Made by a program: the position numbers and the translations under genes. Positions 2,645 through 30,900 of a stretch of DNA of 30,975 nucleotides are shown piece after piece. Below the pieces are notes generated by a model that was given only the letters and a program-made list of their open reading frames with translations, had not been told where the DNA came from and searched no databases. Source of the stretch: Chrysochromulina tobinii (Eukaryota > Haptophyta > Prymnesiales > Chrysochromulinaceae); NCBI GenBank assembly GCA_001275005.1, contig JWZX01001418.1, positions 1-30,975 on the forward strand, read 5' to 3'. Numbering within the stretch: position 1 is the stretch's first letter; every line of letters begins with the position of its first letter.

Positions 2645-3956
2645 ATGCGCGTTGTCAGCTTTCACCACGACGGTGATTGGTCAACGCCATTGACGTTGAC
2701 CGTGAGCATTACGCCGCACGCCCTCGTGCTGCTGCTGTTGGCAACCAGCGTCGCACTCAACTTGTGGCTACTTTGCAGACGACCTGTGTCGAGGCGACCT
2801 CCATCCAAGGCGCGGTTCCACGGCAGCAGCAACCAACGAATCACCACCGCCTCCTCCTGTTCCATTACCGGCTCCCCGAAGATCTCTTCACTTATGGGCG
2901 CGGTCGAGCAGCTGCGGTGTCTCAAAGACGATCGTCGCTTTCTCGAGGCGGGCGTGCTGCTCGATGCACTGCGCGCTGAACTCTCGAAGCGAAGCGGCTC
3001 GGCCGTCTCGTTGTGGGACGCTTGGGACGCTCCGGGCGAGGCGCAGGCGGCGCTCAGTCGACTGCTCTCCGATGGGGGCGAGCTCGAAGCTCGCATCCAT
3101 CAGTTCCGGCGGGCGCAGGCCGATCTCAGAAGCGAGGAGGGCGAGTGCGCGGAGAGCAGCGACTGGGAGGTGATTCGGGACGAGGCAGGCCTCTCCGTCC
3201 TGCTGCGTCGCCAGAGCGCCACCCACTCGCGCACTGCCGGCAAGGTCGTGGCGACGCTCGACGGCGTGCGCGCGGCCGACTGCATGCTCATGTGGCGAGA
3301 GGCGTCGCTGTACCCCAACTGGTTCCCCTTCGTCTCGGGCGGCAAGATGCTGGGTGAGGTGGACCCGGGCGAGGTGTACCTGATGGCCGCTGATGGCCGC
3401 TGATGACCGCTGATTGCCCCCCTCATCAGGTGAGGTGGACCCTGGCGAGGTGTACCTTCAGCTCTTCATTGAGACGTCGTTTATCAACGTCGACATGCCT
3501 CTGCGGGGGGTGGCATGCGACGACATGGCGCGTGCCGGCGACGACGGACAGCGTTCGGGCTGCATGCTGCTCTCGTGCCGCCCGCCGCCCGACTGGCCTC
3601 ACCCGCTGCCCACCGGCGTGTTACCGCCGACCAATACCAGCGAGTCTGGCGCCTTCAAGTTGCTAGGGTCATGGAGCTCCGCTACACACATCGACGTAAT
3701 GATCCAACCTGTCGGTGAGGGCAGCGTGCGCATGGTCTTCCAAATGGCGGACGCCATCCCCGCCGCCACTCCATCATGGGTGCTCAAGCAGATCGTGGAG
3801 AATGCGCTCGGGTCCGTCTTTGGTCAAATGGAGAAGGTGGCCAGGCGCATGGCCGTCAACGACCCCGCGTGCGCACATACGGTGCATGTCAACTCCAAGG
3901 AAATGGTCACCACGAAGCGCTGGTATGAAAAGGCCATGCAGGATCCACTACGCTAG
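2645..3956 (+). CDS. START-like lipid-binding protein with N-terminal membrane anchor
   Basis: Two exons (2645-3353 and 3430-3956) encode about 411 residues. The first in-frame ATG is 2645. Residues about 25-45 form a hydrophobic segment (HALVLLLLATSVALNLWLLC) followed by arginines, a signal anchor. A helical middle region precedes a START-like fold beginning at SSDWEVIRDEAGLSVLLRR, with WREASLYPNWFPFVSGGKML, EVYLQLFIETSF and a C-terminal helix after IPAATPSWVLKQIVENALG. START proteins bind a single lipid or sterol in a pocket and often shuttle it between membranes; the ligand here cannot be told. The 76-nt intron joins CTG G to GT GAG and restores one continuous domain. It starts divergently from the UIM/PDZ gene with about 200 bp between them. 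Confidence 0.75.
3354..3429 (+). other. 76-nt intron flanked by a 29-bp exon duplication
   Basis: Donor GTGAGG, body made of CTGATGGCC/CTGATGACC/CTGATTGC words, acceptor CCTCATCAG. The 29 nt at 3353-3381 recur at 3429-3457 with one mismatch, so the start of the intron is a copy of the start of exon 2. The repeat offset equals the intron length (76). Confidence 0.85.
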
Positions 3957-4097
3957 TCTCACAAAATTCCATATGTTTGCGATCACGCCCCCGAGTGTGT
4001 CTTGTGAGTGTGCCTCCAGCTAGGTCCTCTTTTTACATGACGGACACGATCTCGCCCGGGAGAACGCGGTCTAAACTTTGTGAACGCGGCTTCGTAT

Positions 4098-5769
4098 ATG
4101 AAAACGCGGCCGAAGGCAATGCATAAAGTGACGGCCGTCCTCCTTCTTCTGTCTGCCGATCCGAGTCGCTCGGCGTTTGGTCCAGCGTTGATCTCGTCGC
4201 GCATCCTCGCCAATGCACGACGGACGTCGCCGCCGAGCATGGCTGTGACGTCGCCTCGTCGCGTCGCCGTCGTGGGCGCCGGCATCGGCGGGCTGGCGCT
4301 CGCGCGGGCTCTGGGCGAGCTCGATACGGGCGTGGAGGAGATTGTGGTCTTCGACCGCCGTGCCGAGCTCAAGCCTGGGACTGGCGGCGGCATCCAGATC
4401 AACGGCGGTGCCGCCGTGCTGGCGAGGCTGGGGCTTGGCGAGCAGGTGAAGCGCGCAGCGCTGCCTGTGCGCAGGATCCTGAGCCGAAAGAGCGGCGGCT
4501 TCGAGCTGCTGGACATTGACGTCGCATCGCTGGTGAGTGCCGAGCCCGCCCTCGTCGCAGCCGACGGCACGCCGCAGGCCTTCTCCATCATGCGAGACGC
4601 GCTTCAGCGCATGCTTGTCGATGCGCTCCCGGAGTCGGCGTCGTTGCAGCTGGGACGCCGGCTGGAGTCGATGAGCGAGGATGCCTCGGGCGTCGAGCTG
4701 GTCTTCGAGGACGGCACGGCCGAGCGGTTCGACCTCGTCGTTGGGGCGGACGGCCTCTCGTCGCGTGTGCGGCAGCACGTCGAAGCAAGCCATGCGGATG
4801 CGGACGGTCGAGCGGGAGCGTCGCCACCGACATACAGCGGCATTCGCGTGCAGTTCGGTGTCGTGCCGGGCGGCGGCTCGCGGCCACGAGGCTCTGAAGG
4901 CGAGTTCCATCAGTGGTTTGGTGAGGGGGTGTACGCGCTCACCGGCTCCTATGGCACCGGCTCGGCCGACGGCACGACCTCTGACATGCTCGCCGTCGTG
5001 TTCGCAGGTGACGAAGCATGATGACGCGTGCTTGCACCCGATGGCCTCTGATTGCATCATCGGACCTGTGATTACCACCTGACCGTCCAACACGCTCGCC
5101 GTCGCGTTTGCAGACCCGGCCGCTGCTGCTGGCACTGGCCGCCCAGGCGGCGGGCGCGCCCCTGATGAGAACTCCAACTGGGATGTGAGCGACGTGCGGG
5201 AGGAGTGCTTGCGCCGGCTCGAGCGCGCGGGGCTGCCCGAGGAGGTGCGCTCCGTCGCGCGCCGTTGTGAGCGCTGCTTCGAGCTCGGCGTGTACGAGCA
5301 CGACGCCACGGCGCCATGGGTCTCGCGCGGAGGGCGCGCAGTGCTCATAGGGGACGCGGCCCACGCGATGGCACCGTTTTTGGGCCAGGGCGCCAACCAG
5401 GCGATCCAAGACGGGTACTGCCTCGCCGCGCGCCTCGCCGCCGCCCGCGGGAGGAGCGACCGAGGTTCGTCAGCTTCGTCAGCTTCGTCAGCTTCGTCGG
5501 CTTCGTCGGCTTCGTCGGGCTCGTCGGGTTCGTCAGGGATCGTCGACTGGCTCGCGAGGTTCGTCAGCCCGCTCCAGAGCTACGCGCTGCTACGGCGCGC
5601 GCCCGTCGTGGCGCTCCAGATCGAGTCGAGATTGCTGGGGGCGATGGAGACGGCGGGCGGCGGCGCGGGCACGCTTCCACAGCTCGTGAGAGACGCCTTC
5701 TTCCTGATCAACGGCAAGCTGGGCGTCGCGGCGCAGGTGTTCGTCAAGGGCGCGCGCCCGTGGGTCTGA
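4098..5769 (+). CDS. FAD-dependent monooxygenase, zeaxanthin epoxidase/salicylate hydroxylase-like, plastid-type leader
   Basis: Two exons (4098-5007 and 5114-5769) give about 521 residues, or about 514 from the ATG at 4119. The leader MHKVTAVLLLLSADPSRSAF is a signal peptide followed by an A-F junction and a basic stretch. This is the pattern of red-type secondary plastid targeting. The enzyme part has the Rossmann FAD motif VVGAGIGGLALARAL, the middle DLVVGADGLSSRVR motif, and the second FAD motif VLIGDAAHAMAPFLGQGANQ. These three mark class A flavoprotein hydroxylases, which use NAD(P)H and O2. A carotenoid or aromatic substrate is possible but not shown. A Ser/Ala/Gly run (about 5464-5535) interrupts the C-terminal part. 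The 106-nt intron joins GCA G to AC CCG in frame. The end of the intron copies the end of exon 1. Confidence 0.85.
5008..5113 (+). other. 106-nt intron whose 3' end copies the upstream exon end
   Basis: Donor GTGACG, inner words CTCTGATTGC and TGTGATTACC, acceptor TTTGCAG. The 21 nt before the donor (4987-5007) and the 21 nt before the acceptor (5093-5113) match at 18 positions. Confidence 0.8.
5464..5535 (+). repeat. Ser/Ala/Gly-coding 9-bp tandem repeat
   Basis: About eight 9-nt units (TCGTCAGCT and variants) encode a SAS/SGS-rich linker inside the monooxygenase. The period keeps frame. Confidence 0.85.
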
Positions 5770-9077: not shown

Positions 9078-9399
9078 GGCTTCCGATTACCCCCCGTGAA
9101 TTCACAAGTACATTTAGTCAGTTTCGTCGCGGTCCACCCGCCCTCACCACAAAGTCTCAAAGGACGGTCAGGGTCAGTAACAATTAATTCACATACCGTA
9201 CGCACCGCCTCGGCCACATCCACACGAAACACTGCCACGCAGCGGTCGAGTCGCAAGGTGCTGGACTAGCACGGACCTTGACCCCACAAAATTCGCCCCC
9301 GCACAGAGAGTGAGAGAACCGTACGACTCTTGGTCAACTTCCCGCCACTTCAGCTGATCAGGGGCGCCGTTGGTGAGCACTTGCATGCTACCTGCCTCT
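9078..9399. other. Spacer holding the ankyrin/RING promoter
   Basis: It lies upstream of the ankyrin/RING start and downstream of the phosphatase stop, both minus strand. A short direct repeat, CTTCAGCTGATC, occurs at about 9350 and 9401, the second copy spanning the phosphatase stop. No TATA box or other site is recognisable. Confidence 0.4.
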
Positions 9400-10128
9400 T
9401 CAGCTGATCTGGAGCGGCTCATCGACGGTGGACGCCTTGGCAGGCGCATTGGCGGGCGGAAGTGCACCGGCCGCTGCCGCCTGATCGAGGAGTGCGGTCA
9501 ACTCGGCCTGCGAGAAGCGATTCGGCTTCGCGAGCTCCGCCTCGTACTCGATCAGCTGGAACGTGAACCGGTCGCAGGGCCAGACGGCGTCCCATTTGGG
9601 CTTCATCACGTGCGCCGCCTCGAGGAGCGTCAGGTTACGGGTGCGCATGATGTGGGAGAGGACGAAGGCGGGGGAGCGCGAGAGCGAGGCCATGCAGTGG
9701 ATGAGGACGTGTCCACCCGATGCAAGCACCGCTTCGATCGCCACGGATACCGGTGTGAAGTCTTTCTTTGCATCACCCGCGCAGCGGAGCTTGAGCGGCA
9801 CCGACTTGTCCGCGACCGTGCTCGTCGACGGTTTGCCTTGGTCGAAGTATTTGCGCTCGTTCGGATCGTCCTCCAAATCGACCTCCATGACAATCACGTC
9901 CGGCCCGTAGAAGCCAGTGCGGCATGCGCACTGGGACAAAGCGGAGTTCACCACCATCTTGATGGGTGCACCTTTCGTTGCGGCGAAGAGCTTCTCCTGC
10001 GTGTCGATGTCGTGATAGTGCGCCGTCCACACGCCGGGCACGACCTCCACTGGAGGGCAGCCGTGGTCGTGTCCCGGGCGTTGCCAGCCAGTGTACTCCC
10101 GGAATGCCTCAAAAGTTGTGGGAGCCAT
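9400..10128 (-). CDS. Dual-specificity protein phosphatase-like
   Basis: A single exon of 242 residues from the ATG at 10128 (MAPTTFEAFREYTGW). The signature HCMASLSRS provides the CX5R catalytic loop (Cys nucleophile, Arg phosphate binder), and MEVDLEDDP upstream fits the general-acid aspartate loop of the family. The following helix (AFVLSHIMRTRNLTLLEAAH) and the WP..RF..QL motif are typical of cysteine-dependent dual-specificity phosphatases. These remove phosphate from Ser/Thr/Tyr residues or other phospho-substrates. There is no leader or membrane segment, so it is probably cytosolic or nuclear. The frame stays open upstream to 10365, and an ATG at 10311 would lengthen the N-terminus. 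I prefer 10128 because the upstream part reads like untranslated sequence. Confidence 0.85.
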   Translation of the reverse strand: MAPTTFEAFREYTGWQRPGHDHGCPPVEVVPGVWTAHYHDIDTQEKLFAATKGAPIKMVVNSALSQCACRTGFYGPDVIVMEVDLEDDPNERKYFDQGKPSTSTVADKSVPLKLRCAGDAKKDFTPVSVAIEAVLASGGHVLIHCMASLSRSPAFVLSHIMRTRNLTLLEAAHVMKPKWDAVWPCDRFTFQLIEYEAELAKPNRFSQAELTALLDQAAAAGALPPANAPAKASTVDEPLQIS

Positions 10129-10361
10129 GACAAACACGGGACGTGCGTATGAATACCAAAATTGGGGGAAAATTCCGAAATGGGAAATTTTTGTTAAATA
10201 GGGCAGGCACCCACTGCACACCCCAACCCACTCTCCTATTGCGCTCTGCCTCCGCCGCTGCCCCTGCTCACCGCGACGCGATGGTCCCGGGCGCAGCGTC
10301 GAGGCTGCCATCGAGGGCCAGCCGCCACGTTCGTAAACGTATTTGTCGTCGCAAGGCCGTC

Positions 10362-10850
10362 TCACTCATTCTCAAACTCGTTCCTTAGATCCCCAATGGT
10401 GTCCTTCAGTTTGTCCAGCTTCGTTGCCAGGTCTCTGTATATGCATCGGTAACAGGATTTGTCCAGCTTTTCTGCCCGTGTTTCGAGAAAGCCCTCGAAA
10501 TCAGTCGCTGCATCTATTAGGCTCTTCCGGAGAATAGCCGCGAGGCATTTCACCTCTTCTGGCAAAATCTCGCCGTTCTTCAGTGCTGTGCACTTGTCGA
10601 ACGCATCCTGCAGGTCGACCCGGACGTTGTGAGGGAGAGGCTTGCCCTCGCTCCACTTTTGGCGGGACTCGATCCACCTAGTTATGGCTTTCCCCTTGGT
10701 GATGTTCAGAGATTTGGACATCAGCCTCAAGTTGAAGCAATTATACTCGTCGCCGTCGCAGTTCTGGATCTCCTTGATGGGCCTCAGCGCGTTCTGCACG
10801 ACGACGGCACTGTTCCCGTCGATATGCTTGCATCTTGAGGAGTCGTCCAT
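10362..10850 (-). CDS. Unrecognised protein, helical, possibly the last exon of a longer gene
   Basis: An open frame of 162 residues from the ATG at 10850 (MDDSSRCKHIDG) to TGA. The frame stays open to 10919 without another ATG. Composition is ordinary for a folded protein (mixed charged and hydrophobic residues, Cys/Tyr/Trp present) and unlike the Ala/Arg-rich shadow frames around it. The C-terminal third looks alpha-helical and may be a coiled coil (KLDKLKDTIGDLRNEFE). Base composition is less GC-rich than in the neighbours. No family is recognised. It could be the 3' exon of a gene whose earlier exon is the segment at 10913-11062, but the frames do not join directly. Confidence 0.45.
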   Translation of the reverse strand: MDDSSRCKHIDGNSAVVVQNALRPIKEIQNCDGDEYNCFNLRLMSKSLNITKGKAITRWIESRQKWSEGKPLPHNVRVDLQDAFDKCTALKNGEILPEEVKCLAAILRKSLIDAATDFEGFLETRAEKLDKSCYRCIYRDLATKLDKLKDTIGDLRNEFENE

Positions 10851-11198: not shown

Positions 11199-13334
11199 TC
11201 AGCCGTCTCGTCCATTTTTGGGAGGCTCAAGCTGCCGAAACCACTCAAAAGTGGCCGAGGTGCCGCGCCGCACCTCGAGCTCGTACTGCTTCTGTCGACG
11301 GCGGCGCTCCTGATGAGCCTCGCCATCAGGGCGGCCCGAGTTGTGAATCGCGTCCAGGAATGCAGATGCGGCGCGGCTGTGCTCGTCAAAGCGGCCCTCG
11401 ACGGCGAGATACGATCCTCCGGTGGCCGCAGCGAGGGCCGCGTACCTGTGATGAGGGGTGCAATCAGAGGTCATTAGTGGCCATTAGAGATACGATCCTC
11501 CGGTGGCCGCAGCGAGGGCCGCGTACCTGTGATGAGGGGTGCAATCAGAGGTCATTAGTAGCCATTAGAGATACGATCCTCCGGTGGCCGCAGCGAGGGC
11601 CGCGTACCTGTGATGAGGGGTGCAATCAGAGGTCATTAGTAGCCATTAGAGATACGATCCTCCGGTGGCCGCAGCGAGGGCCGCGTACCGCTCGCGCTGC
11701 GAGACCTATGTGGGGAGAGGCGCAGGTGGTGAGCGGTTGCATGCAGAGGGCCGCGTGGCGCTCGCGTGGCTCGACCTAGGGCCATCAGAGGGCCATTAGA
11801 GGGCCATTAGGGGGTACTCAGAGGGTCCTCATGGGGACATCAGAGGGCCATCAGGGGTCTGCGCACTTGGCCGAGGACGACAACGTGCCACTCGACATCA
11901 TACCCAGCGGCGTGCAGGTCGTTCATCAGAGGATCCATCCCACGCAACCCAGCGTACTGTGCAGGCGAGAGGGTATCGTGTCCGTCGGTGATGACGATGC
12001 AATCAAGTCGCACTCAAGTCGCATTCAAGTCGCAATCAGTACTTGTGCAGGCGAGAGGGTATCGTGTCCGTCGGTGATGACGATGAGACGGAGCTTGCCG
12101 CCCGCTGGCCGGTAGCGGCCAAGCACGTCCTGCTGAATCATGTGCCATAGGTACGTGCCACCTGATGAGCCATCCCATCCGAGCGAGATGAGTTCCGTCA
12201 TCATCGGAGGTGACTCCTCTCTCGGAGCGAGAACCTGATGAGGGATGCAATCAGAGGCCATTAGAGCGCCATCGGGTGCGCCTCGAAGAGAAATTTACCG
12301 ATGAGGGATGCAATCAGAGGCCATTAGAGCGCCATCGGATGCGCCTCGAAGAGAAATTTACCGATGAGGGATGCAATCAGAGGTCATTAGAGCGCCATCG
12401 GGTGCGCCTCGAAGAGAAATGTACCGTAGGCGCGGCGCCAAACTTGAGTACGGTATGCAATCAGATGCAATCAGAGGTCATGCAATCAGAGGTCATTAGA
12501 GCAATGTACCGTAGGCGTGGCGCCAAATTTGAGTACGCGCGTAGGGCCGCGCAGCAACGGTCCCATCGTAGAGAGCACGCGCTTGCCTTCGTCGAGCAGC
12601 GTGCTGCCCCAGCTGCCGCCCCATCCACTGCCACCGCCGTCGCCGTCGCCGCCGCTGCCGCTGCCGCTGCCGCTGCCGCTGCCGCTGCTGCTGATGCTGA
12701 TGCTGCCGCGCATGGAGCCGGAGTCGTCGAGGTAGAGGACCGTCTCGATGCCGCACACGTCCACCGGCGACGCCACCGCATCGAGCACCGATGGTACCGA
12801 CTGGAGCAAATGGCCGGCGAGCATGAAGCCCGGGTGGCGAGCCTTGGCGAGAGCGCTGCCGGCGACCGGCGCGACGGTCTTGGCGACGCCCCACGCTGCG
12901 CGTGCAAACGCTCCGACCACGCTCGCACCGCCGCCGCTCGGCAGTTGGGCGGGAGGCATGGCGTCGTCGGATGGCGAGGTGAGGACGATGGCCGAGGCGT
13001 CGCGCTGGGCATTCCACAGCTCCTCAGTGTAGCCGAGGCCGTGCTGCGCGGCACCCCGCTGCGAGGCCGTCAGCTCATCCCAATTCTGCAATGTCGACAT
13101 CGGCGCGTGGCGCGAGCCATCCCAGCTCTCGGCCGACCAGCCGAGCGCTGACCAAGCTGCGCGCTCGTCGGTTGGCAGAGCGCCCCAGGATGTGCGCCGG
13201 CTGACTTCGAGGTGTGGATGACGTACGAGGCTGGAGAGCGTTTGGCGGTGGGCGTATAAATAATTGTGACGAGGAAGGCGATGCCCGAGCCGTGGGCGTG
13301 CGAGAAGGCCGAGGCGTGCGAGCAAAGCGGCCAT
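11199..13334 (-). CDS. von Willebrand factor A domain protein, six exons
   Basis: Exons: 13334-12510, 12234-12043, 11956-11867, 11705-11689 (17 nt) and 11445-11199, about 456 residues, all in phase. The heading counts a sixth exon only if an upstream one exists; five are visible. The N-terminal part has two copies of a W..L...R.A...LG(W/Y)...W module (from about residue 50), then the vWA fold. YLDDSGSM gives the DxSxS metal site, TYLWHMIQQDVLGRY the next helix, and LRLIVITDGHDTL the TDG loop. WHVVVLGQ and the TGGSY strand follow, then a charged C-terminal tail. vWA domains bind partners through a metal ion. A Ser/Gly run (12640-12710) sits just after the metal motif. Introns: 12509-12235, 12042-11957, 11866-11706, 11688-11446. 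Three of the four show copied exon sequence. The start is the first in-frame ATG; a later start at 13100 would lose one W-module. Confidence 0.8.
11407..11689 (-). repeat. 81-bp tandem array forming an intron out of exon copies
   Basis: Units start at 11407, 11488, 11569 and 11650. Each holds about 40 nt of exon (coding YAALAAATGGSYL) plus about 41 nt of intron core (CTAATGACC, CTGATTGC, CCTCATCACAG). The predicted intron 11446-11688 is exactly three units (243 nt). Every unit begins with a usable GTACGC donor and ends with a usable CACAG acceptor. Confidence 0.9.
11957..12042 (-). other. 86-nt intron flanked by a 45-bp exon duplication
   Basis: Plus positions 12040-12085 (exon) recur at 11955-11999 with a single one-base indel. 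Between them lie only 40 nt made of GCGACTTGA words. Splicing CAA to TAC keeps the vWA frame. Confidence 0.85.
12235..12509 (-). other. 275-nt repeat-filled intron with a copied exon end
   Basis: A 35-nt exon segment (12503-12537) recurs inside the intron at 12418-12452 with two mismatches. The rest is a 63-bp tandem array. Donor GTACAT, acceptor CCTCATCAG; it joins ACG to GTT in phase. Confidence 0.85.
12237..12425 (-). repeat. 63-bp tandem repeat, three copies, inside an intron
   Basis: Units start at 12237, 12300 and 12363. Each carries the CTAATGRCC-CTCTGATTGC-CCTCATC core on the minus strand and a GGTAAATTT or GGTACATTT donor-like start. Confidence 0.9.
12632..12712 (-). repeat. Ser/Gly-coding low-complexity repeat
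   Basis: CCGCTG/CTGATG hexamers encode a Gly-Ser and Gly-Asp linker directly after the vWA metal-site motif. Confidence 0.8.
13255..13263 (+). promoter_or_regulatory. Possible TATA box
   Basis: TATAAATAA on the plus strand, 241 nt before the ATG of the four-helix/PDZ gene. It overlaps the 5' end of the vWA reading frame, so it may be chance, or the vWA gene may start further in. Confidence 0.2.
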
Positions 13335-16218: not shown

Positions 16219-19136
16219 TTAAGTACTAGGGGGCGTTGCGGGCTTCGGCTTGCCTGACTTGGGTTTGCTCGGCGGCGGCGCACCCTTCGGCTTCGCCGGC
16301 CGTTGGCTGACCTTGCGACGTGCGCCGCCGCTGCGGCTGTTGCGGCCGTTGCGGCCGTTACTTGAGCCTCGGCCCGCCTGCGCGTCAGCCGTGTTCGTCA
16401 GCGCCCGCCACCACCCCCACCAACGGCCGCTCTCCTCCCCTGAGCTTGGTGCCCCGCGCCTGCCACCGGTGGGCTGCTTCGGCCGCTTGGGTTTGCCTAA
16501 TTTGGGTTTGCTCGGCGGCGGCGCACCCTTCGGCGTCAACGGCCGTAGGCTGACCTTGCGACGTGCGCCGCCGCCGCGGCTGTTGCGGCCATTGCGGCCG
16601 TTACTTGAGCCTCGGCTCGCTTTCGCAGCCTGCGCGTCAGCCGTGTTCGTCAGCGCCCGCGCCTGCGCGAGCCGGGTCGTTCCACCAGAGGCCATCAGAG
16701 GTCATCAGAGGTCATCAGAGGCCATCATAGGTCATCAGAGGCAATCAGAGGTCATCAGGGGCCATAAGGCAGCACCTGAGCGAGCCGGAGCGTTTGCACC
16801 AAAAGAAGGACGAGGGCCACAGGAGGCGCGAGCTCAATCGAGATGCGCCCGAGCTCATTCGAGATGCGCCCCAAGCTTGCGCCAAAGCCCTGCAGCGGCG
16901 CGCCGAGTTGGGCGGCGGCCTCGGCTCCCCCGGCGGCCATCACGTCCGAGAGCAACACCCTATTATGGTAATATGGACGGAGAAAAGACCGGAGGAGGTC
17001 AGAAGGCACTCAGAAGGCACTCAGAAGGCACTCAGAAGGCACTCAATATGCAATGAACACCTTGAGAACGCGAAGACGAAGAGAAGGCCAGCGAGGGCGT
17101 CGGCGATCTCCTTCGCGCCAGAAGGCAGCGGGCGACGCAGCAGCCCCTCAGCGCCCAGCAGCAGCATCTGCCATCCGTCGAGGCCGGGTACCGGTAGGCT
17201 GGGCACCAAACAGCGAGGGAGAGAGAGGGTGAGAAGCGACCCGACCCAAACTCGAGTTTAGTCAGTGTGGTCGATGAGAAAGGAGGGCAATCAGCATGCA
17301 CTCCGAGAGCACTCCGAGAGCAATCAGCCGCAATCAGAGCGCAATCAGCATGCACTCCGAGAGCACTCCGAGAGCAATCAGCCGCAATCAGAGCGCAATC
17401 AGCATGCACTCCGAGAGCACTCCGCACCTATTGACCACAGCGAGGTTGAGGGAGAGGATGGCGCCGAATTCGAGTAAGTTGAGGACGTCGAGCGTCGCGA
17501 GGTCTGCGCCTGATGAGGGAGGCCCTCGGATGCAATCAGCATGCACTCCGTATGCAATTCGAGGCAATCAGCATGCACTCCGAGGCGCACGCACCCATCC
17601 GAGCGATGCCCAACGGACCCTTAATGAGGGAGGCAATCAGCATGCAATCAGAGCGCAATCAGCACGCAATCAGAGCGCAATCAGCACGCACCCATCCGAG
17701 CGATGCCCAACGGACCCTGCAGCTGCGCCGGCGGAGATGCAGATCTCGCGCCGGGAGATCTCGTGCCGGGGCGCATACCGCTCAGAAGGCTCTCGAAGGC
17801 GGAGCTCAGCCCAGATAGAATCTCGCGCGCATCTCGCCAGACGGCGCGCGCCGCCCTGCTGCACCGCAGGTAGCGGCGCGAGTGGTACGCGACGCACGGA
17901 GATGCCGTTACGCGACGACAACTCGACTCCAAGCGTCCTCTGTGGGGAAGCAGAGGGTGGCAGCCTCACTGTCATCAGCGGCAATCAGAGGTCATCAAGC
18001 AGCACCTGAGCGAGGCCGAGGGTTGGCACCCTCAATGTCATCTCCCGTCCGTCTCGCTCGATGAGGGTGTCAAAGGGGGCGCGAGCGCCCACTGCGGCGC
18101 GAATGGCTTCGACCGACGCCTCAATTGACGAAATCGGGGCCACCTCGAGTGACGAAACCGGAGCCGCTTCGAGTGACGAAATCGGAGCCGCCGCTGCCGC
18201 CGCCGTGCCGCCGCGAGCGCTCACGGGAGAGCCTGCCGTACCGGTACGTGTGCGCGCTGTCGTGGGCGGCGCTGTCGTGATCGGCGCTGTCGTGGGCGGC
18301 AAGGCGCCTGCCGTACCGGTACCCGCCACCGTACCCGCCATAGCGCGCCTGACGGTGGGCGCTGCGGGACTGTGCGCTGGGATGGGCACCGCGGGAGCGC
18401 TGTTTCGGGCACCGAGGGGCATGCCGGGCCGTTGGAGCTTCACATTCACATTCACAGACCCGATGCTCAGAAGACGATCGCCTGGATGGAATCCGGCAGC
18501 CTCGGCTGCGGAGGAGGGGAGCACGCGGCTCACCACGACCGGCTGCTCGACGGGTAGGGGCACCCCGAGTGTCCCGGCCGCGGCCACGAGCAGTGTGAAC
18601 GAGAGGATGACGTTCGCAACCACGCCTGCGCCGACGACGAGAGCTCGCTCGCGCAGCGGTCGGTTCTCTAGCAGATCGGGCCCGTCCTCGACCTGTAGCG
18701 CCGGATCGAGTGGCTCGCCCGGCTCGAGCAGCTTGCGCTCCTCGAGCTGCGTGCGGTTCAGCAGCCGCGGGAAGCTCACGTAGCCGCCAATGGGCAGCGC
18801 GCGCAGGGTGTACGAGATGCCGTTGGCCGCGGTCTTCTTGAGCAGCGGCGGGCCGAAGCCGATGGAGAACTCGGACACGCGGATGCCCTGCCAGCGTGCG
18901 GCCGCAAAGTGCCCTAGCTCGTGGATCACCACGACGGCCGTCAGCGTGGCCAGCCCGGCGATGGGCGCGAACTGAGCGGGCAGGCCGATGGCGAGTGGAG
19001 GGCGGCTGCGCCGCGGCAGCCGCGAGGGTGGGCGGTGGTGCGGCAGCGGCGGCTGGAGCGATTGTCTCAACAACGGCTGAAGTGGAGAGTGAAAGGAAAG
19101 AACGGCGATGAGGACTGCGGAACTGGCTGCCGACAT
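16219..19136 (-). CDS. Site-2 metalloprotease (RseP/plastid S2P type), six exons, frameshift in exon 2
   Basis: Exons: 19136-18006, 17939-17692, 17509-17428, 17198-17061, 16959-16776, 16662-16219; about 740 residues. The leader MSAASSAVLIAVLSF plus a Pro/Arg-rich stretch suits plastid import. The catalytic helix VVVIHELGHFAAARW has HExxH. IGGYVSFPR and a PDZ domain (SRVLPSSAAEAAGFHPGDRL) follow. Exon 2 ends in QGPLGIARMG, the GPxGI motif. Exons 3-4 give ILSLNLAVVNSLPVPGLDGW, the LDG motif with the metal-binding Asp. Helices in exons 4-5 close the core. This family cuts membrane proteins within the bilayer. Oddities: a long Thr/Pro/Ser insert within the PDZ domain, a basic repeat tail in exon 6, and a two-base deficit (or one extra base) in a GC run at about 17843-17853, where the frame of RTLGVELSS must shift to reach VWRDAREIL. 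Introns: 18005-17940, 17691-17510, 17427-17199, 17060-16960, 16775-16663. Confidence 0.85.
16250..16661 (-). repeat. 243-bp coding duplication in the protease tail
   Basis: About 169 nt at 16250-16418 recur at 16493-16661 (offset 243, in frame). Each copy encodes ALTNTADAQA, a Gly/Asn/Arg-rich run, and KGAPPPSKPK. Confidence 0.85.
16663..16775 (-). other. 113-nt intron of CTGATGACC-type words with copied exon end
   Basis: It is nearly all CTGATGACCT/CTGATGGCCT/CTGATTGCCT. The exon end CGGCTCGCTCAG is mirrored by the acceptor block CGGCTCGCGCAG. The first intron of the same gene (17940-18005) shares the exon-end and donor sequence CTCGCTCAG-GTGCTGC. Confidence 0.85.
16960..17060 (-). other. 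101-nt intron with an 11-bp tandem repeat
   Basis: Four GAGTGCCTTCT units follow the GTGTTC donor; the acceptor is ATAATAG. It joins TCA AG to G GTG in frame within the last part of the protease core. Confidence 0.75.
17287..17427 (-). repeat. 54-bp tandem repeat inside an intron
   Basis: Units start at 17287, 17341 and 17395 (third partial). Each is built of CTGATTGC and CGGAGTGC words on the minus strand and lies in the 229-nt intron 17199-17427. Confidence 0.9.
17510..17691 (-). other. 182-nt intron containing an exact 34-bp exon copy
   Basis: Plus 17685-17718 (exon end plus donor, coding GPLGIARM) recurs without mismatch at 17588-17621. The inner copy is bounded by an AG and a GT and could act as a 25-nt cryptic exon, which would shift frame. 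Confidence 0.85.
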
Positions 19137-19322: not shown

Positions 19323-21722
19323 ATGTGCAGGCGGAGCTCAAGACGACCTCGAGACCCTTCGCCGGTCGCTCGTACCGGAGTCGTCTTGAGCAAGACGCCC
19401 TCGATGGGGACGCACGTTCTGGTAGGTCGCACACAGAGCACGGTGAACCCCGCCGACCCCAAGGTGCTTCAGGACGGCGAGCAGTTTGGCAGCCCATCTG
19501 GCTCCCCTCCATCGGTGAGGGTGCGCGTGTGCGTGCTGAATATCTACGAGGTCAACGCGCAAGAACGTACGTGGCAAGGCAAGATTCATCTGGAAGCGTC
19601 CTGGCACGACCCGACACTGTGGCGTGACAAGCGAGAGCACGAGGAGTGGCCGGACCCGGACGCGGATCTCTGGCCGCAGCAGTGCCCGTTTGTTGCGGGC
19701 CAAAATAAGCGCTGGACGCCGCGGCTGGAGATTGAGAACTGTCGTCGGGATTTTTCACGAGAGACGTGGTTTAAGGTTTACTACAAGGGCAAGCAAGTCG
19801 ACGAGGAGGGTCGCGAGAGGATCATTCATCTCGACTGGCCGGTGGTCGAATACAATCTGGTGATCCGCGGCATGTTCACGTTCGAGTTCCAGCCCCACAG
19901 ATTCCCCTTTGATGTGCAAGAGCTGCCCGTGAGGGTCCGTAGCAATCGAAGTATCCCCTCGAAAGACGCATCGAGCACGAGCGAGTCGGTCCGGCACTTT
20001 GCTCACATTTGCCTCGACGAGCGCAAAGGTCATCCTTCCAAGGTTCTGAGCCACTGATGGCACTGCTGGCCATTGATGGGCATTTCCCCTTGTTTGCCTC
20101 CTTCATGCCCTCTCTCTCTCTCTCTCTCTCTTGAAGCACGGCAACCTGCTCGCGGGCGCATGGGATCGAATGGCACCTTATGTCGCCTGATTGCACTCCC
20201 TCATTAGGTACTGAAGCACGGCAACCTGCTCGCGGACGAATGGGATCTCGACGGTACACTTTGGCTGAGTGAGGGGAGGACGTTGCAGCGCTCGCACTTC
20301 GAGTACCCAGTCGTTGAGTTCAAGGTGAACTCGAAGGCAACGAATTGCCGCTAGTGCAACGGATTGCCATTGACGAATTGCCGCTAGTGCAACGGATTGC
20401 CATTGACGAATTGCCGCCAGTGCAACGGATGGCCATTGACGAATTGCCGCTAGTGCAACGGATTGCCATTGACGAATTGCCGCTAGTGCAACGAATTGTC
20501 GCGAGTGCAACGGATTGCCGCTGAGCAGGCGTCCAGTTTGATTGCCGCTGATAGTAACGCCTCCCTCCTCAGGTTCGGCTCCACTGAAGATGATTGGCAC
20601 TGATGAGCTTCTGATGAGCCTCTGATGACGTCTGATGGCCTCCCTCCTCAGGTTCGGCTCCACCGGCGCGCCGGCTTCTACGTGTACTCAATCTGGCTGC
20701 CCAACTTTCTGCTCGTGACGCTCGCCTTCCTTGTGCTCAAGCTCGAGCCTGAGGAAGTTCAAGATTACGACCGTGAGATGATCGATCATCCTAACTTCCG
20801 CTTTGATCGTCAACCGCTCGTCAATGAGCGCGTGACGCTCGTCACCACGCTGCTCCTCGCGTCGGCCGGTTACCGTGCCAACATCGATCTCCCGCGCACC
20901 CCGACGTTCTCCTGGCTCGAAGCCTACCTGCTCGTGTGCATCGGCGCACTCTTCTTGCTAGCCCTCTTCTCCTATGGTCCGCTGATGACCTCTGATGACC
21001 TCTGATGGCCTCTGATGGCCTCTGATGACCTCTGATGACTTCTTACGAGTACAACCTGTGATGACCTCTGATGAGCAGAAATCTTCGGCAAAGCCAAGCT
21101 CGAAACCGACAACATCCTGAAAATTTCGGCGCCCTTCCTCGTCGTTCTGGGTATCTGGGGCATCTGCAGAGATCAGCTTGTGTACCAATGCAGACTCTCC
21201 TTTGCCGGCACGAATACTCTCTTATTTACGTGCGTCTTCTGGCTGATCGCTATCATCGGTCTTGCGCTCTGGCACCAAACAACCGACACCATCCTGAGCA
21301 TGGCGGGGCCCTTTCTCGTCGTCCAGGGTATCTGGTGCATCTGCCGGGCTCAGCTTGTGTCGAAAAGGTTTACTGCGATCTTCTGGTCGATCGCTCTCTT
21401 CGGTCTTTGGGCCTGGCACCGTCAGTCCGATTTCTTGGTCTCGACGGTGCGGAAGAGTATCGACAGCCCGGCCGAATTCTGCTTCTTTCTTTGGATCGTG
21501 CTCAACATCGTCTTCTTCCTCCTCTACTGCGAGCGCTGCAGCTGGCTGCAGCCGCAGCCTCACAGCACACCCGAGGATGGGTGTTTCCTCGAGCCGCCGA
21601 GGCCGATCACGTCAGCCCTCGAGATCGCAAACGGGCCGATGGTAGCCGGGGCGCTCGCACTGTCGCCAGCCCCGCAAGCACGAGCGGCGACCTCGCCAGC
21701 GCGCGGGGGGGTCAGCCGGTGA
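19323..21722 (+). CDS. Pentameric ligand-gated ion channel (pro-loop type, no Cys-loop cysteines)
   Basis: Exons 19323-20042, 20208-20324, 20652-20976 and 21079-21722 give 601 residues, all in phase. The extracellular beta-sandwich has RWTPRLEIEN and the loop FTFEFQPHRFPFDVQELPVR. Its FPFDxQ core matches the Cys-loop, but Phe and Leu replace both cysteines, as in prokaryotic channels. M1 is YVYSIWLPNFLLVTLAFLVL, M2 is VTLVTTLLLASAGYRANIDL (ending before the LP), M3 is WLEAYLLVCIGALFLLALFS, and M4 is CFFLWIVLNIVFFLLYC. Between M3 and M4 two copies of a FLVV.GIW.ICR.QLV module (about 21130 and 21310) add unusual hydrophobic segments. Ligand and ion selectivity cannot be told. The start is the first in-frame ATG; the ATG at 19404 is an alternative. 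No cleavable leader is evident. Confidence 0.85.
20043..20207 (+). other. 165-nt intron with a 36-bp copy of the next exon
   Basis: 20132-20167 matches exon sequence 20212-20247 at 34 of 36 positions. A CT dinucleotide run (about 20110-20131) precedes the inner copy. A CTGATTGCACTCCCTCATTAG block precedes the true acceptor. Confidence 0.85.
20325..20651 (+). other. 327-nt intron with minisatellite and a copied acceptor
   Basis: Donor GTGAAC. It holds about 4.5 units of a 33-bp repeat (20338-20500). The 25-nt block spanning the acceptor and the exon start occurs at 20560-20584 and again at 20639-20663, so two equal acceptors exist 79 nt apart. Confidence 0.85.
20338..20500 (+). repeat. 33-bp intronic minisatellite
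   Basis: About 4.5 copies of a unit with GAATTGCCGCTAGTGCAACG followed by GATTGCCATTGAC-like sequence, with few mismatches. Confidence 0.9.
20977..21078 (+). other. 102-nt intron of CTGATGACC/CTGATGGCC words
   Basis: Donor GTCCGC, at least eight CTGATG words, acceptor GATGAGCAG. It joins TAT G to AA ATC just after M3. Confidence 0.8.
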
Positions 21723-24692: not shown

Positions 24693-24965
24693 TCCGGAAG
24701 GTGTGGCCCGCTTTCTTTTGCCGTTGGAGGGCGATCGAAGCTTTTTCGCGGGCCTCTCTTTCACATCTCTAAAGTCAGCTCAAAGATGTTTTTTTAACGG
24801 TGCTTATCCAGAGCTTAAAGGTAGTTTCTAAACTACCCATAAACTACGGTCGGTACCTTGTGTGTCGATTCAACTGACCCTTTCTCAAACTACCTAAGAT
24901 GAGCCTGCACGTTCAGTCTAATCTTCCTTCTCAAAAGAAGAAGCTAGGAAATAGTGATAGAGGTC

Positions 24966-27900
24966 TCAGCTGATCTGCCCGAGCGCGCCCAGGAGCACGC
25001 GCGTGAACTCGCCGTAGCTCACGCGCTCATGCGTGAGCCGGCCGAGGGAGGCAAGCAGCGCGTTCACCTCCGCGTCGCTCCGATGCAAGCCGAGGCTCAG
25101 GAGTACCAGCTCGATCTCGGCACTCGAGATCGAGTCGGTCGAACTATCCGCGAAGAGCTCAAAGGCGGCGCGCGCCTCGCCCGAGAGATTCGCCGAGATA
25201 TTGCCCGGGATCAGAGCCCCCGTTCCGGCGAGGTTCGTCACTGCGGCGTGCGCGGTCGCGGGGACGCCATCAGTGCTGGCGAGGACGCCATCGGTGCTGG
25301 CGAGGACGCCATCAGTGCTGGCGAGGACGCCATCGGTGCTGGCGAGGACGCCATCGGTGCTGGCGAGGACGCCATCGGTGCTGGCGAGGACGCCATCAGT
25401 GCTGGCGAGGACGCCATCAGTGCTGGCGAGGACGCCATCGGTGCTGGCGAGGACGCCATCGGTGCTGGCGAGGACGCCATCAGTGCTGGCGAGGACGCCA
25501 TCAGTGCTGGCGAGGACGCCATCGGTGCTGGCGAGGACGGCACAGAGGCGGCTGAGTGTCTCCGAGCTCACGATGACCTCCGCCAAGGGCTCTGCTTCGG
25601 AACTTGAGGCGCCGCCGATTGTACCAGCAGCGGGGAAACCACCAGTGGGGAAACCACCAGTGGGGAAACCACCAGTGGGGAAACCACCAGTGGGGAAACC
25701 ACCAGTGGGGAAACCACCAGTGGGGAAACCACCAGTGGGATAGCCGTCTGTGGGGAAACCGTTTGGAGGGCGAGCAGCGAGGCCGAGGGCGGCCAGCAGG
25801 GGCTTCAGCTGGCTAATGGGGGGGCTCATTAGGCCGAGAGTGGCCTGGATGACGTGTGGAACGTCCGCCACTGGGACACCGGCGCAGCTGAAGCCGCCAC
25901 CGAAGCCCCTGTTCACACCGAAGCCCCTGTTCACACCGAAGCCCCTGTTCACACCGAAGCCCCTGGCGCCGCTGCCGCCATTGGACACCAGATTCGCCAG
26001 AGCGACGGCTGCGTAAGCCTTGGCTTGAGCGTCGCCGTCGCGAGCCAGCGCCGCGAGCGCCTCGATGCCACCCGCCGCCGCGATGGCCTCCAGGTGAGTA
26101 GACTTGCCGTGTGAAAGGTACGCGAGCGCCGCGGCTGCGTACGCCCTCCCTTGCGCGTCGCCCTCGCCAGACAGCGCCGTGGTGAGCGTCTCTATGCCGC
26201 CTGCCGCCACAATCGCCGGATGGTGGGCCTGCGCGCACGCCAGGCTCGCCAGCGCGCCGGCCGCGTTGACCCTCCCTTGAGCATCGCCATTTCGAGCGAG
26301 CACCACCAGCGTCTCGATGCCGCCTGCCGCCGCGATCGCCTCCCGAAAGGCATCATCGGTCGCCAGGTTGATCAACGCTCCAGCGGCGTACGCTTGCCCT
26401 TGGGGCTCACCGTGGCGAGCCAGCGCTACCAGCGCCTCAATCCCGCCCGCCGCTGCAATCGCCGTCCGGTTCGCCTCGTCGAGCGCGAGGTTCGTCAAAG
26501 CCCCACCGCTGTTCGAGGCGCCCTGCGCGTTGGCGCCGTCGCACGCGAGCGTGACGAGCGCCTCGATGGCGCCTGCCGCCACGATGACCTGACGGTTCGC
26601 CTGCACGCACGCCAGGCTGCCCAGCGCGCCAGCCGCGTTGGATTTGCCTTCCGCGTCGCCGTCACGAGCGAGCTCGACGAGCGCCTCGATGCCGCCCGCC
26701 GCACCGATCGCTTCCCGAAGGGCATCCTCCTGTGCCAAGTTGAGCAGCGCCCCAGCGGCATTCGTCTTGCAGAGGGTGTCGCCTTCCAAATTGGGGAGAT
26801 CCGGTTGCCTAATTAGGAGCGCCACGAGTGCCTCGATGCCGCCCGCCGACGCGATCGCGGAGCGACCCTCACCTGATGAAGGAGGCAATCAGCACGCACT
26901 CAGAGAGGCACGCAGCATGCAATCAGGCCGCCGCAATTGCGGAGCGACCCTCACCATCGAGGGCCTGATGAAAGAGGCAATCAGCATGCAATCGCGGGAG
27001 CGACCCTCACCATCGAGGGCCTGATGAAAGAGGCAATCAGCATGCACTCGCGGGAGCGACCCTCACCATCAAGGGCCTGATGAAAGAGGCAATCAGCATG
27101 CAATCGCGGGAGCGACCCTCACCATCGAGGGCCAGAGTCGCCAATGCGTGCGCCGCCCTCGCCTGACCCTCCACGTCGCCCCCTCGAGTGAGCGCGACGA
27201 GGCCAGAGGCCACCGCAGAGGCCGTGCCGGCGTCGAGGCCGTCGGCGGAGGCCAGGGCTGAGGGGGAGAGCGCTCGGGACGGCGCTGAGGTGGGGAGCGA
27301 CGGCCATTCAAAGCGCCGTCCCGAGCGCTGGCCTCTGGCAGAGGTGGAGGTGGAGGTGGAGAGCGACCTCTGCCAGCCCTGCCGCGCCAGATTAGGATTG
27401 TCAGACAGAGTTTCCATATTAGGATTGTCAGAATTAGTTGCCAGATTAGGATCGGTAAGCCTTCGCCTCGATCGAACCAACAACATGCTTGTCATCGCCT
27501 CAAGCTCTTCGCTGGCGCGTTGGGCGCCGTCAGGACTAGCTCTGCCGTCACCTCCGGCGCCATCGGAAGGAGAGCTCGCCTCAAAGGCGCGCATGGCGAG
27601 CTCCAATCGAGCCACAGCCGCGGGCGGAAGCGGACGCGCACACGCGAGCGCCGTGCGCGCCGTAATGAGCGCATCGATCTCCGAGTCGGCATGCGGGGGC
27701 GGTGGCAGCGGCGGCGCGGCGCACAGCTGCAAGAAGTGCGAAAAGGAGAGCAGCGCGGCGGGAGGAGCGGTTGCGGCGGCGCTAGCGCTGCTGCCGACAA
27801 CCACGGCGGCGGTCTCTAAGGGGCTCGCGTCGTGATGGGCGGTCTCAAAGGGGCCCGCGTCGTGATGGGCGGTCTCAAAGGGGCCCGCGTCGTGATGGGC

Positions 27901-30900
27901 GGTCTCAAAGGGGCTCGCGTCGTGATGGGCGAGGGCCGCCGCATGCCGCTGCGCGTGGGCGAGCACGCGGCTCCACTCTGCATGCGGCAGGTGACGAATC
28001 TCTAAAGCTCCGAAGACGAGATCGAGCTCCGAAGGCCGCACGTACCCCTCGCGCGCGCCGTCGTGGGCGCCGTCGAAGAGGGCGAACGCGGTGTGCAGCG
28101 CCGCGAGCGGCGCCGTGCCGAGCGGCGCACACAGCGTTTCGGCGAGGACCGCGAGGGGCGCGCCGTCGTGGCGCTTCGTCACTCGCTTCGTCACTCGCGT
28201 CGTCGTGGCGGCAAGGCCGAGGAAGTCAGGCGAAGGCACGGGCGCTGTGGTGGCGCTCGGGGCGGCGCTCGGGGCGGCGCTCGAGGCGGCGCTCGGGGCG
28301 GCGCTCGGAGCGGCGCTGTGAATGGAGGGGGCAAGCACGTCCGCCGCCTCGGCTGCCGCGGCGGACATCTCATCCCATAGCAGCGCCGTCCCGAGCGCCA
28401 TCTCATCCCATCGCGGCGCACCCTTGCCTGCGTCTGCGCCTGTGCCTGTGCCTGTGCCTGTGCCTTTGCCGCCTCCTTCGCCGCCGCCAGAGGCCACCTC
28501 GGCGCCCAACTCGGCGCCCAACTCGGCGCCCACCTCGGCGCCCACCTCGGCGCCCATCCCTGCGCCCACCTCGGCGCCCATCCCGGCGCCCAGCGTCTCG
28601 GCGCGCTTGGCTGCAGCGTACGGGCGCACCATGTGATAGAGGAGGAGCCCGACCAAATTAGGAAAGGGCACGCACTCGTACGCGCGCAGCGCCGTCTCGA
28701 GCGCCGCGCGGCTCGCCGCCGTCAGGTAGCCCGCCCCGAAGGCGCCTAGGAAGAGCTCGAGCGCCGTCGTGGGCATCACGCCCCCGCCGCGGAGCTCGCC
28801 AGTGACGACATCGAGGCTGTACAAAGGGGGGGGCGCGTGCGGCGCCGTCCCGAGCGCCACAACCGGCGCGTGCAGCGCCTGCGCGGAGGCGGCGCCGAAG
28901 AGGGCGAAGGCATCGTGGATGAGGGCGACGAGGGTGAGGAGAGCGGGTGGCGGCGGAGCAGGCAGCAAGAGGATCACCGCCTCAAGAGGCAGCGCTGGTC
29001 TGCTCGGGTGGAGCGGGGGAACGCCGGCGTCGGTGGCGACGGGCGGCGGGAGGCGCGATGCCGTCGAGATCGCAATCTGGGCCAATGAGGTGCCGAGCTC
29101 GCGATCTCGACGCGAGCTCGCAATCTGGGCCAATGGGATGCGATGGATCGCGAGAGCGACGCCGGCGCTCCCCCCGCCCGGTGACGTGGACGGCACTCGA
29201 AACGGACGGAGATTGAGCGAGATCGTGCAGCTCCGACGCTCCTTTGACGACACTGGCGGTTCGCCCATCTCGGCGCGCGCGCGCGCGCGCGCCGTGCTGA
29301 GCAGCGCGCGCTGCGCCGCCGCCTCCTCTTGCGCCTTGGCCGCGAGGTACCTGATGAGGGAGGCAATCGGACTGATGAGGGAGGCAATCGGAGGGGTCTG
29401 TCGAGGGACTGCTCAGAGGGCAATCTCGCTGATCTCGCTGAGTAGAGGGTTCATCAAGGGTTCATCAAGAGGTCATCAATTGCTCATCAAGGAGTCATCA
29501 ATGGGTCATCAATGAGTCAGTAAGGGGCCATCAAGGCGTCAATAAGGGGTCATCAACGGGGCATCAAGGGTGCATAAAGGGTGCATCAGACGTACTTTGC
29601 ATTCTCGCGCCGGAGCGAGTCTTCGCGCGCGAGGAGCTCTCGCAGCCACACCTGATGAGGCCAGCAATCAGTCGCAATCAGCATGCACTCAGTCGCAATC
29701 AGCATGCAATCGCGCGCGAGGAGCTCTCGCAGCCACACCTGATGAGGCAAGCAATCAGTCGCAATCAGCATGCACTCAGTCGCACTCAGCATGCAATCGC
29801 GCGCGAGGAGCTCTCGCAGCCACACCTCGCGGCGGAAGTGTTCGTGACGGCCTGATGAGGCTCGCAATCAGTCGCAATCAGTCGCAATCAGCCACACCTC
29901 GCGCCGGAAGTGTTCGTGACGGACCACCTCGGCCTCGTGCTCGGCACGGCGCGCCGCCGCCTTCGCCTCCTCCTCCGCATCGCGCAAGGCGGCTGGTTGG
30001 ACGGCTTGGTCGGCGCTCGGGGCGGCGCTGTGAATGGAGGGGGCGAGCACGGCTGGTTGGAGGGCTTGGTCGGCGTCCTGTGCCGCCCACGCGCGCGCGC
30101 AGGCGTAACGTGCCATCGAGGCCGCGCGTCGCTCCTGATGAGGGACGCAATCACGCGGATGAGAAACGCAATCACGCTGATGAGGATCGCAATCACGCGG
30201 ATGAGGAACGCAATCAAGCTGATGAGGAACGCAATCAGTGCATGCAATTCGACGCACCTCTTCTTGTCGTTCCCGCTCGGCACGCGCCGTGGCGGCGGCC
30301 TCCTCCACCTGATGAGGCAAGCAATCAGTCGCAATCAGCATGCAATCAGCATGCACTCCGCATGCACTCCGCATGCAATCAGCGCTCATCCACCTGCCGG
30401 CGCATCTCGCGACTCGACGCCTGATGAGGCCAGCAGTCATTCGCAATCAGTCGCAATCAGTCGCAATCAGCGCTCATCACCTGCCGGCGCATCTCGCGAC
30501 TCGACGCCTCTGCCGCAGCCGCCGCCTCGTGCCGCGCGCTGTCTTGGGCGGGCGAGGCGGCCGTTACGCTTCGTTGGGTTTCGAGGACGAGCACGCTGGC
30601 GCCGTCGCGGGCGGCCGGTCTCGTACCGCCCACGACGGCGCCTGCGCCCGCGAAGGAGGTGGCCGCTTCGTCCACGTATGACGAGGCCGGTGGCGGTGGC
30701 GCCCGCGACGGCGCGGGCTCGTGGTGCACCAGCAGCTGTGCAAAGGGGACCATCGCTGCGAGCGCCGCCTCGGTCGCCTCCTTGGCGAGCGCGTGCCCGA
30801 GACGGCGCTCGAGCGCCGCGGCACGCTCGACGGTGGCGACGGGTAGTTGGGCGGAGTCGACGGGTAGCGAGACGAAGCCACGCCGCTGGCCGCCCGTGGG

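What the first reader, a model, noticed from the sequence alone, without database searches (positions are those of the whole stretch)
3354..30480. A window-wide family of introns built from CTRAT tandem words and flanked by copies of exon sequence
About 18 of the 21 or so introns I can place carry tandem CTGATTGC/CTGATGACC/CTGATGGCC/CTAATGACC words and an acceptor close to CCTCATCAG. At least nine also contain 20-45 nt of the adjoining exon (3354-3429, 5008-5113, 11446-11688, 11957-12042, 12235-12509, 17510-17691, 20043-20207, 20325-20651, 26873-27122, 29652-29897, 30309-30480). Introner elements are known from Micromonas and Aureococcus, and intron gain by duplicating an exon piece with a latent splice site is a known model. 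Here both signs appear together: a small core of about 40 nt between long exon-derived repeats. The duplications are far longer than usual transposon target-site repeats. I infer an active intron-making process, either an unusual introner with long target duplication or a replication/repair slip that carries the core.
Basis: partly seen in the sequence, partly recalled or inferred. Interest (0 to 1): 0.88.

Follow-up and report, generated by a model that had tools for sequence, protein, structure and literature searches.

The report
Introns seeded by copying exon ends
In this alga a set of introns consists of short repeated cassettes carrying the branch-point and acceptor signals, dropped into exons together with a long copy of the neighbouring exon that supplies the missing splice signal, so the way new introns are made can be read from the sequence.

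Summary
All 11 listed introns hold an exon copy of 12-42 nt; 10 of 11 beat random intervals at p<0.05. The core 3' end occurs 1455 times in the genome, 0 in the reversed control. In loci fetched without regard to copies, 33 of 59 acceptors have a downstream-exon copy starting exactly at the acceptor, against 3 of 1180 mismatched pairs; 29 of 33 begin GT, the 5' splice site. Removing introns restores frame in 26 of 34 (chance 1/3). A second core family (495 copies) has the same architecture and also sits as in-frame coding inserts, in both orientations. Relatives lack inserts: a 98% identical protein reads across 3354-3429, a paralogue lacks the introns 20043-20207 and 20325-20651, a close homologue lacks a 60-nt coding insert. 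I read this as intron gain by inserting a short core with an 11-45 nt target duplication, most likely by template-switch or staggered-break repair; a mobile element with unusually long target duplications is the main rival. No RNA-seq was available; absence in a relative could be loss, or splicing if the record is a transcript.

The parts
3354..3429 (+). Intron in a START-like gene: 28-nt copy of the downstream exon + 48-nt core of CTGAT words ending CCTCATCAG
   Evidence: spliced ORF open to its terminal stop; P0027 (98% identity) reads across the site
3354..3381 (+). Upstream exon copy; its GTGAGG is the 5' splice site
   Evidence: 27 of 28 identical to 3430-3457
3382..3429 (+). Core: branch-point-like CTGAT words and acceptor
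5008..5113 (+). Intron in an FAD-binding monooxygenase-like gene; 24-nt copy of the UPSTREAM exon end supplies the acceptor
   Evidence: (open spliced ORF); FAD_binding_3
11446..11688 (-). Intron of three 81-nt [40-nt exon copy + core] units
11957..12042 (-). Intron with 42-nt copy of the upstream exon; acceptor is exon-derived
12235..12509 (-). Compound intron: upstream-exon copy plus 63-nt tandem units
17510..17691 (-). Intron with a 35-nt duplication across the exon/intron junction, CTGATTGC words, acceptor CCTCATCAG
20043..20207 (+). Intron 1 of a gene weakly like Cys-loop receptors; 36-nt copy of the downstream exon inside it
   Evidence: no interruption at this site in paralogue L080 nor in P0002, P0004
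20325..20651 (+). Intron 2 of the same gene; 33-nt tandem repeats, then a 12-nt exon copy + core
   Evidence: no interruption at this site in L080 nor in P0002, P0004
26873..27122 (-). Intron in an ARM-repeat gene: tandem 56-nt units plus a final 28-nt exon copy + core
   Evidence: ARM matches
29652..29897 (-). Two successive events: a 34-nt duplication around a core, and a 29-nt exon copy + core in two 87-nt units
30309..30480 (-). Duplication of the exon end AGGCGTCGAG..CGGCAGGTG around a core, followed by a second core
9365..9388 (-). Family-2 core (19 of 24 letters) 11 nt after the stop of ORF 9400-10365, flanked by a 23-nt imperfect repeat

Best explanation
These introns are gains made by inserting a short core together with a direct duplication of the target exon, about 11-45 nt long. 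SHOWN by sequence: the structure is exon-X | A-copy | core | A-exon, where A mostly begins with GT. The upstream A copy gives the 5' splice site and spacer, the core gives branch-point-like words (CTRAT, or CTCAC in family 2) and the acceptor (CATCAG or CCCCACAG), and taking the interval out leaves X-A in frame. [A+core] units also occur in tandem. The same insertion occurs in frame in coding sequence and once just after a stop codon, so the insertion step does not depend on splicing. INFERRED: the insertion is a DNA repair or replication event. A staggered break or stalled fork in an exon is filled by a strand that switches, through 2-4 nt of microhomology to CTGAT words, onto an existing core (often one nearby), copies it, and returns upstream of where it left; the back-step is the duplication. 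INFERRED: selection keeps those whose duplication begins G|GT and puts the branch point about 40 nt or more from the 5' splice site.
For: Exon copy anchored at the acceptor in 33 of 59 against 3 of 1180 mismatched pairs, 29 of 33 copies starting GT. Frame agreement across removed introns 26 of 34; unspliced sequence open in some frame in only 4 of 34. In 48 elements the duplication has median 24 nt, range 11-44 (the method admits scores from 11 and lengths to 50). Left-junction microhomology of 2 or more nt in 13 of the 24 testable elements against 4.2 expected, p=5e-5. Core similarity within contigs exceeds all 2000 label permutations. Two introns of L076, 498 nt apart, share an identical 39-nt core, and two of L078, 415 nt apart, share one of about 52 nt, with different A. 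Family 2: flanking repeat in 19 of 26 copies against 7.7% of 260 mismatched pairs; seven repeat pairs around its eight copies in L082 have periods 42, 45, 48, 51, 54, 60, 60, all multiples of 3, in a stretch open over all 320 codons. Sites without insert in relatives: P0024, P0027, L080, P0002 and P0004. 5' site to last branch-like A at least 39 nt, that A to acceptor median 17 nt.
Against: No transcript data. 26 of 59 acceptors have no copy at the strict threshold, 18 of 59 at the loose one. The same core ends recur hundreds of times genome-wide, which random repair patches would not give; this favours a mobile element. The microhomology test covers 24 of 48 elements, and 9 of these 24 show none. 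Duplication length and core length are only weakly related (rho -0.28, p=0.055), so selection on spacing is not demonstrated. The linker test of locality was weak (13 of 24 neighbour pairs alike, 8.3 expected), and gene conversion could also make cores alike locally. P0024 could have lost the insert by slippage between the two A copies, which also leaves one copy. P0027, P0002 and P0004 may come from transcript assemblies; they would then show splicing, not absence. The 17-nt branch-to-acceptor spacing is partly built into how loci were found. Most loci come from one search pattern.
Confidence: 0.5

Rival explanations
1. The cores are non-autonomous mobile elements (introners): short sequences moved by an enzyme in trans that makes unusually long, variable target duplications; introns are those insertions that can be spliced.
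For: Hundreds of dispersed copies with a conserved 3' end in family 1 and a conserved 24-nt unit in family 2; insertions in both orientations and in coding sequence; presence/absence in a close homologue.
Against: Duplications vary from element to element (11-44 nt); by inspection the 24-nt unit has no terminal inverted repeats; the left end of family-1 cores varies; no mobilising enzyme was looked for except reverse transcriptase.
Confidence: 0.27
2. RNA-templated insertion: excised intron RNA, ending exactly at CAG, is reverse-transcribed into a nick (target-primed), giving a fixed 3' end, truncated 5' ends with microhomology and variable target duplications.
For: Cores end at the acceptor while their left ends vary with microhomology; the genome has 26 RVT_1 matches, 22 over the cut-off.
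Against: Coding copies of family 2 stop at or near CGGCGC, before the acceptor; two window introns have cores whose right end is not CAG (5008-5113, 11957-12042); the exact CAG end is also what selection for splicing would leave.
Confidence: 0.13
3. Tandem duplication across an existing intron-exon boundary (as in the potato RdRp case) makes the exon copies; no insertion into intronless exon is needed.
For: Internal units of arrays have this form, core|A|core|A (L052, L076, window 11446-11688).
Against: 33 of 48 elements have no acceptor-like sequence just upstream of the A copy; relatives show no interruption at the site, with the transcript caveat; coding inserts have the same form.
Confidence: 0.06
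4. Slippage of branch-point minisatellites only; exon matches are chance or low complexity.
For: Word arrays do expand; single intervals have modest p-values.
Against: Mismatched-pair controls; exact anchoring at the acceptor.
Confidence: 0.02

Closest known systems
Introners (survey PMC9860276; passages and the whole of its section on finding similar introns seen)
   Same: Dispersed similar introns; one splice site co-opted from the target duplication, one carried by the element; insertion need not change the mRNA.
   Different: It gives 3-9 bp target duplications for earlier families and 4 bp for one Chrysochromulina sp. family; here 11-44 nt. Its search required similarity to begin within ten intronic bases of both ends, which introns whose first 11-44 nt are local exon would fail. 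The same cores are also in-frame coding inserts here.
Intron gain at staggered double-strand breaks in Daphnia (PMC4202315; passages seen)
   Different: Repeats of this kind there are 4-12 bp; here longer, and the inserted sequence belongs to recurrent core families.
Tandem genomic duplication: AGGT model and the boundary-crossing potato case (PMC4974935; abstract and outline seen)
   Same: An exon copy supplies the donor site; tandem [A+core] arrays match the boundary-crossing form.
   Different: A core lies between the copies; the base at -2 is A in only 10 of 33 sites, so AGGT is not required; most first copies lie next to exon without a previous intron.
Intron transposition / nearly identical introns in one gene (PMC3443670, PMC3879977; passages seen)
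   Same: Same-gene sharing of intron sequence.
   Different: Only the core is shared, and each copy has its own long target duplication, which reverse splicing as described there does not predict.

Membership tests
Introner elements | Many introns sharing sequence across one genome | tested here: met
   1455 and 495 pattern matches, 0 in reversed controls; not every match was shown to be an intron
Introner elements | Similarity reaching both intron ends (criterion of the 2022 survey) | tested here: not met
   In the elements with a copy, the first 11-44 nt are local exon; no all-against-all BLAST was run
Introner elements | Short target duplication (3-9 bp in earlier families) | tested here: not met
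   Median 24 nt, 5-95% 13-42, in 48 elements; duplications under about 11 nt are below the method's threshold
Introner elements | Terminal inverted repeats (in part of the families) | tested here: inconclusive
   Only the family-2 unit was inspected by eye; none seen
Introner elements | Splice site co-opted from the target duplication, mRNA unchanged | tested here: met
   P0027. Splicing itself not observed
Introner elements | Transposase or other mobilising enzyme | not tested
   Only RVT_1 was counted
AGGT tandem-duplication introns | Intron consists of the duplicated exon segment alone | tested here: not met
   A core of 37 nt or more lies between the copies (which asked for at least 25)
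Staggered-break repair introns (Daphnia type) | Direct repeat of exon flanking an insert | tested here: met
Staggered-break repair introns (Daphnia type) | Arises by break repair | not testable with these tools
   Microhomology is consistent, not proof
Spliceosomal introns | GT..AG ends, branch-like word at usable spacing, frame restored | tested here: met
Spliceosomal introns | Observed splicing | not testable with these tools
   No reads; whether P0027 is genomic or transcript is unknown

The most novel reading that the evidence does not exclude
A distinct route of intron birth: branch-point/acceptor cassettes are copied, often from a neighbouring intron of the same gene, into exons by a template-switch process that duplicates 11-45 nt of target. 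The same process writes in-frame peptide inserts into proteins. Because the 5' end of each intron is local exon, such introns escape screens that demand similarity at both ends, so the process may be common and uncounted.
Probability: 0.4. Interest if true: 0.92.

Novelty: new variant of a known kind. Interest (0 to 1): 0.82.

Why it matters
How new spliceosomal introns arise is a long-standing open question with few cases that still show how they were made. Here 48 non-redundant elements were read, and hundreds of core copies exist, in which target, duplication, inserted core and splice-site source can be read off, with relatives at hand that lack some of the inserts. It would let gain rate, donor choice and selection on splice-site spacing be measured, and it suggests one insertion process giving either an intron or new protein sequence.

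Tried and rejected
Chance or low-complexity matching: rejected by mismatched-pair controls. The first control (score>=16 in 55 of 94 against 27 of 282) was confounded by shared CTGAT words, and the shifted-anchor control (score>=10 in 51 of 93 against 91 of 558) by tandem arrays; one search replaced them. A generic search for repeat-insert-repeat in the 200 kb found 15 pairs, 2 with family-1 words and 13 with neither core: a low background. The linker test of locality used 59 of 62 typed rows out of the 100 listed and was weak. A search of the own genome with the START-like protein found only the gene itself. Pfam on the spliced receptor-like protein gave only Neur_chan_LBD below its cut-off (E 0.23), so that name is weak; START-like and phosphatase-like are recalled, from no call. 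Rfam gave nothing for window and L082. Core 1 (one 21-letter pattern) was not found in the viral or prokaryote collections, core 2 once in the viral one. Taxon: 58 chlorophyll-binding matches show a photosynthetic alga; a haptophyte is my guess, not shown.

Papers: PMC9860276: passages and one whole section. PMC7789003, PMC4202315, PMC3443670, PMC8379373, PMC3879977: passages. PMC4974935, PMC11782384, PMC8355091: abstract and outline. Others: search listings only. The listings of ten searches showed no title or abstract describing this architecture; I did not read those papers through, and the library lacks most subscription papers.
Full report
Setting. The window is positions 1-30975 of contig C559 of a 53.15-Mb, 2253-contig eukaryotic assembly. 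The assembly has 58 matches to the chlorophyll-binding family, all over the cut-off, so it is a photosynthetic alga; the species was not established.

Observation. Sense CTRAT words are about 25-fold denser there than in a 200-kb sample from 20 other contigs. Spliced models are open: the START-like gene and the FAD gene to their stops, about 1366 codons of the ARM gene, and 261 codons of its upstream part (there a second frame is open too), and a receptor-like protein across two introns.

Genome-wide. The core 3' end CTGATTGC-N(0-30)-CCTCATCAGG occurs 1455 times, with 0 in the reversed control; overlapping matches inflate this count. I fetched 48 loci (L029-L076) around the first 100 listed matches, without regard to exon copies; the match on C1 lay too near an end, and those on C101 were already held in L010 and not used. 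Of 84 distinct acceptors in these loci, 59 in 45 loci remained after dropping those followed by another CTCATCAG within 130 nt or with too little flank. Of these 33 have a downstream-exon copy anchored at the first exon base with score 11 or more, against 3 of 1180 mismatched pairs; at score 8 it is 41 of 59 against 24 of 1180. So 56-69% carry the copy, and 18 to 26 of 59 do not at these thresholds.

Are they introns? With codon usage trained on long ORFs (frame found in 71% of 90-nt test pieces), the best frames left and right of the removed interval agree in 26 of 34 outermost elements (chance about 11); 27 of 34 score better in sense; 23 of 34 are open in the best frame; the unspliced sequence is open in some frame in 4 of 34. 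Internal array units and elements with short flanks were dropped before this count.

Anatomy. Of 48 non-redundant elements (score 11 or more, copy starting with G and at most 50 nt, core of 25 nt or more with two words), 37 lie in L029-L076 and 5 in the window. The copy is 24 nt in the median (range 11-44), the intron 85, the core 62. In 33 with no acceptor-like sequence just before the copy, the base before it is G in 29, the copy starts GT in 29 and GC in 4, and the base at -2 is A in only 10. The last branch-like A lies at least 39 nt from the 5' splice site and a median 17 nt from the acceptor; the second figure is partly built into the search pattern. The duplication thus provides spacer as well as donor site. 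Where the copied exon ends in AG instead (5008-5113, 11957-12042), the copy provides the acceptor.

Junctions and donors. In the 24 elements whose core has a clear period, exon letters continue the word array backwards by two or more bases in 13, against 4.2 expected from a simulation that includes boundary ambiguity (p=5e-5); 9 show none. Cores on one contig resemble each other more than cores on different contigs: mean score 12.77 (104 pairs) against 10.53 (3442 pairs), above all 2000 permutations. Two introns of L076 share an identical 39-nt core 498 nt apart, and two of L078 one of about 52 nt 415 nt apart, with different exon copies; the L077-L079 loci were chosen for shared variants. The linker test was only suggestive.

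A second family. GCATGCAAGTGCTCACCACGGCGC, followed in introns by a pyrimidine-rich stretch and CCCCACAG, was counted 495 times by its last 20 letters, 0 in the control. In 26 held copies kept by the scan (60-70 nt of flank needed; L005, L008 and L081 left out; several are units of one array), 19 have a flanking direct repeat of score 11 or more against 7.7% of 260 mismatched pairs. L082 holds eight copies with at most one mismatch, seven in one orientation and one in the other; seven repeat pairs around them have periods 42, 45, 48, 51, 54, 60 and 60, repeats within the GCC runs and compound ones set aside. All 320 codons are open in one frame of the minus strand and also in one of the plus strand; the minus strand is taken as coding because P0024-P0026 match it. 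A copy in the window (9365-9388, minus) lies 11 nt after a stop codon with an imperfect 23-nt repeat. The insertion step thus works without splicing.

Presence and absence. P0024, 95% identical to the L082 protein in aligned columns, lacks a 20-aa unit (60 nt) and there has exactly one copy of the duplicated peptide; it also lacks a further 33 aa (two units) but keeps others. Loss by slippage between the copies would leave the same state. P0026, a more distant homologue, has its own MQVLTTAP insert between GFGRGAVG repeats. P0027 (98% identity, 328 aa, 52 member sequences) reads across intron 3354-3429, as do P0028 and P0029. The paralogue on C1818 (L080, 55-66% identity by stretch) has neither window intron and has an interruption with stop codons, taken as an intron, at a third place where the window gene has none. 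P0002 and P0004 have neither intron. Records with sources jgi, ena and ncbi may include transcript assemblies; then P0027 would be evidence of splicing.

Conclusion. Core insertion with long target duplication, making spliceable introns and also coding inserts, is well supported. The enzyme or repair route is inferred. I favour template switching or staggered-break patching from existing cores; a mobile element with long target duplications is the main rival because the same core ends recur hundreds of times. The published introner survey required similarity beginning near both intron ends, so it would probably miss these introns.

Noticed in passing
L082 (C343:2100-3060): In-frame coding copies of the family-2 core give repeated peptides (RRGEHLHA; MQVLTTAP in homologue P0026); some are missing in close homologue P0024.
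   Followed up: partly
window 20043-20207: P0003 (94%) and P0005 (84%) read into this intron with different sequences and lengths around the CT run: length variation among related records.
   Followed up: no
L081 (viral-collection contig, 4554 nt), 4499-4554: A family-2 core followed by CCACCACAG|GTGAG at the end of a contig classed as viral; a host fragment or a virus with such an intron.
   Followed up: no
L064 (C127:6802-6843): Antisense family-1 units that can be read in frame on the other strand; coding signal there is weak.
   Followed up: partly
L080 (C1818:17990-19000, minus): The paralogue's interruption starts at GACG|GTACG; the window gene has an intact exon with GACG|GTACA there, a latent donor site.
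   Followed up: partly
window 25258-25539 and 25623-25760: Coding 21-nt (13.4 copies) and 15-nt tandem repeats in the ARM gene.
   Followed up: no
window 6282-9086 minus: Ankyrin-repeat plus RING-finger ORF of 934 aa with 99-nt repeats.
   Followed up: no
window against L009-L028: Word density is very uneven between contigs; reason unknown (gene class, age, or mixed assembly).
   Followed up: no
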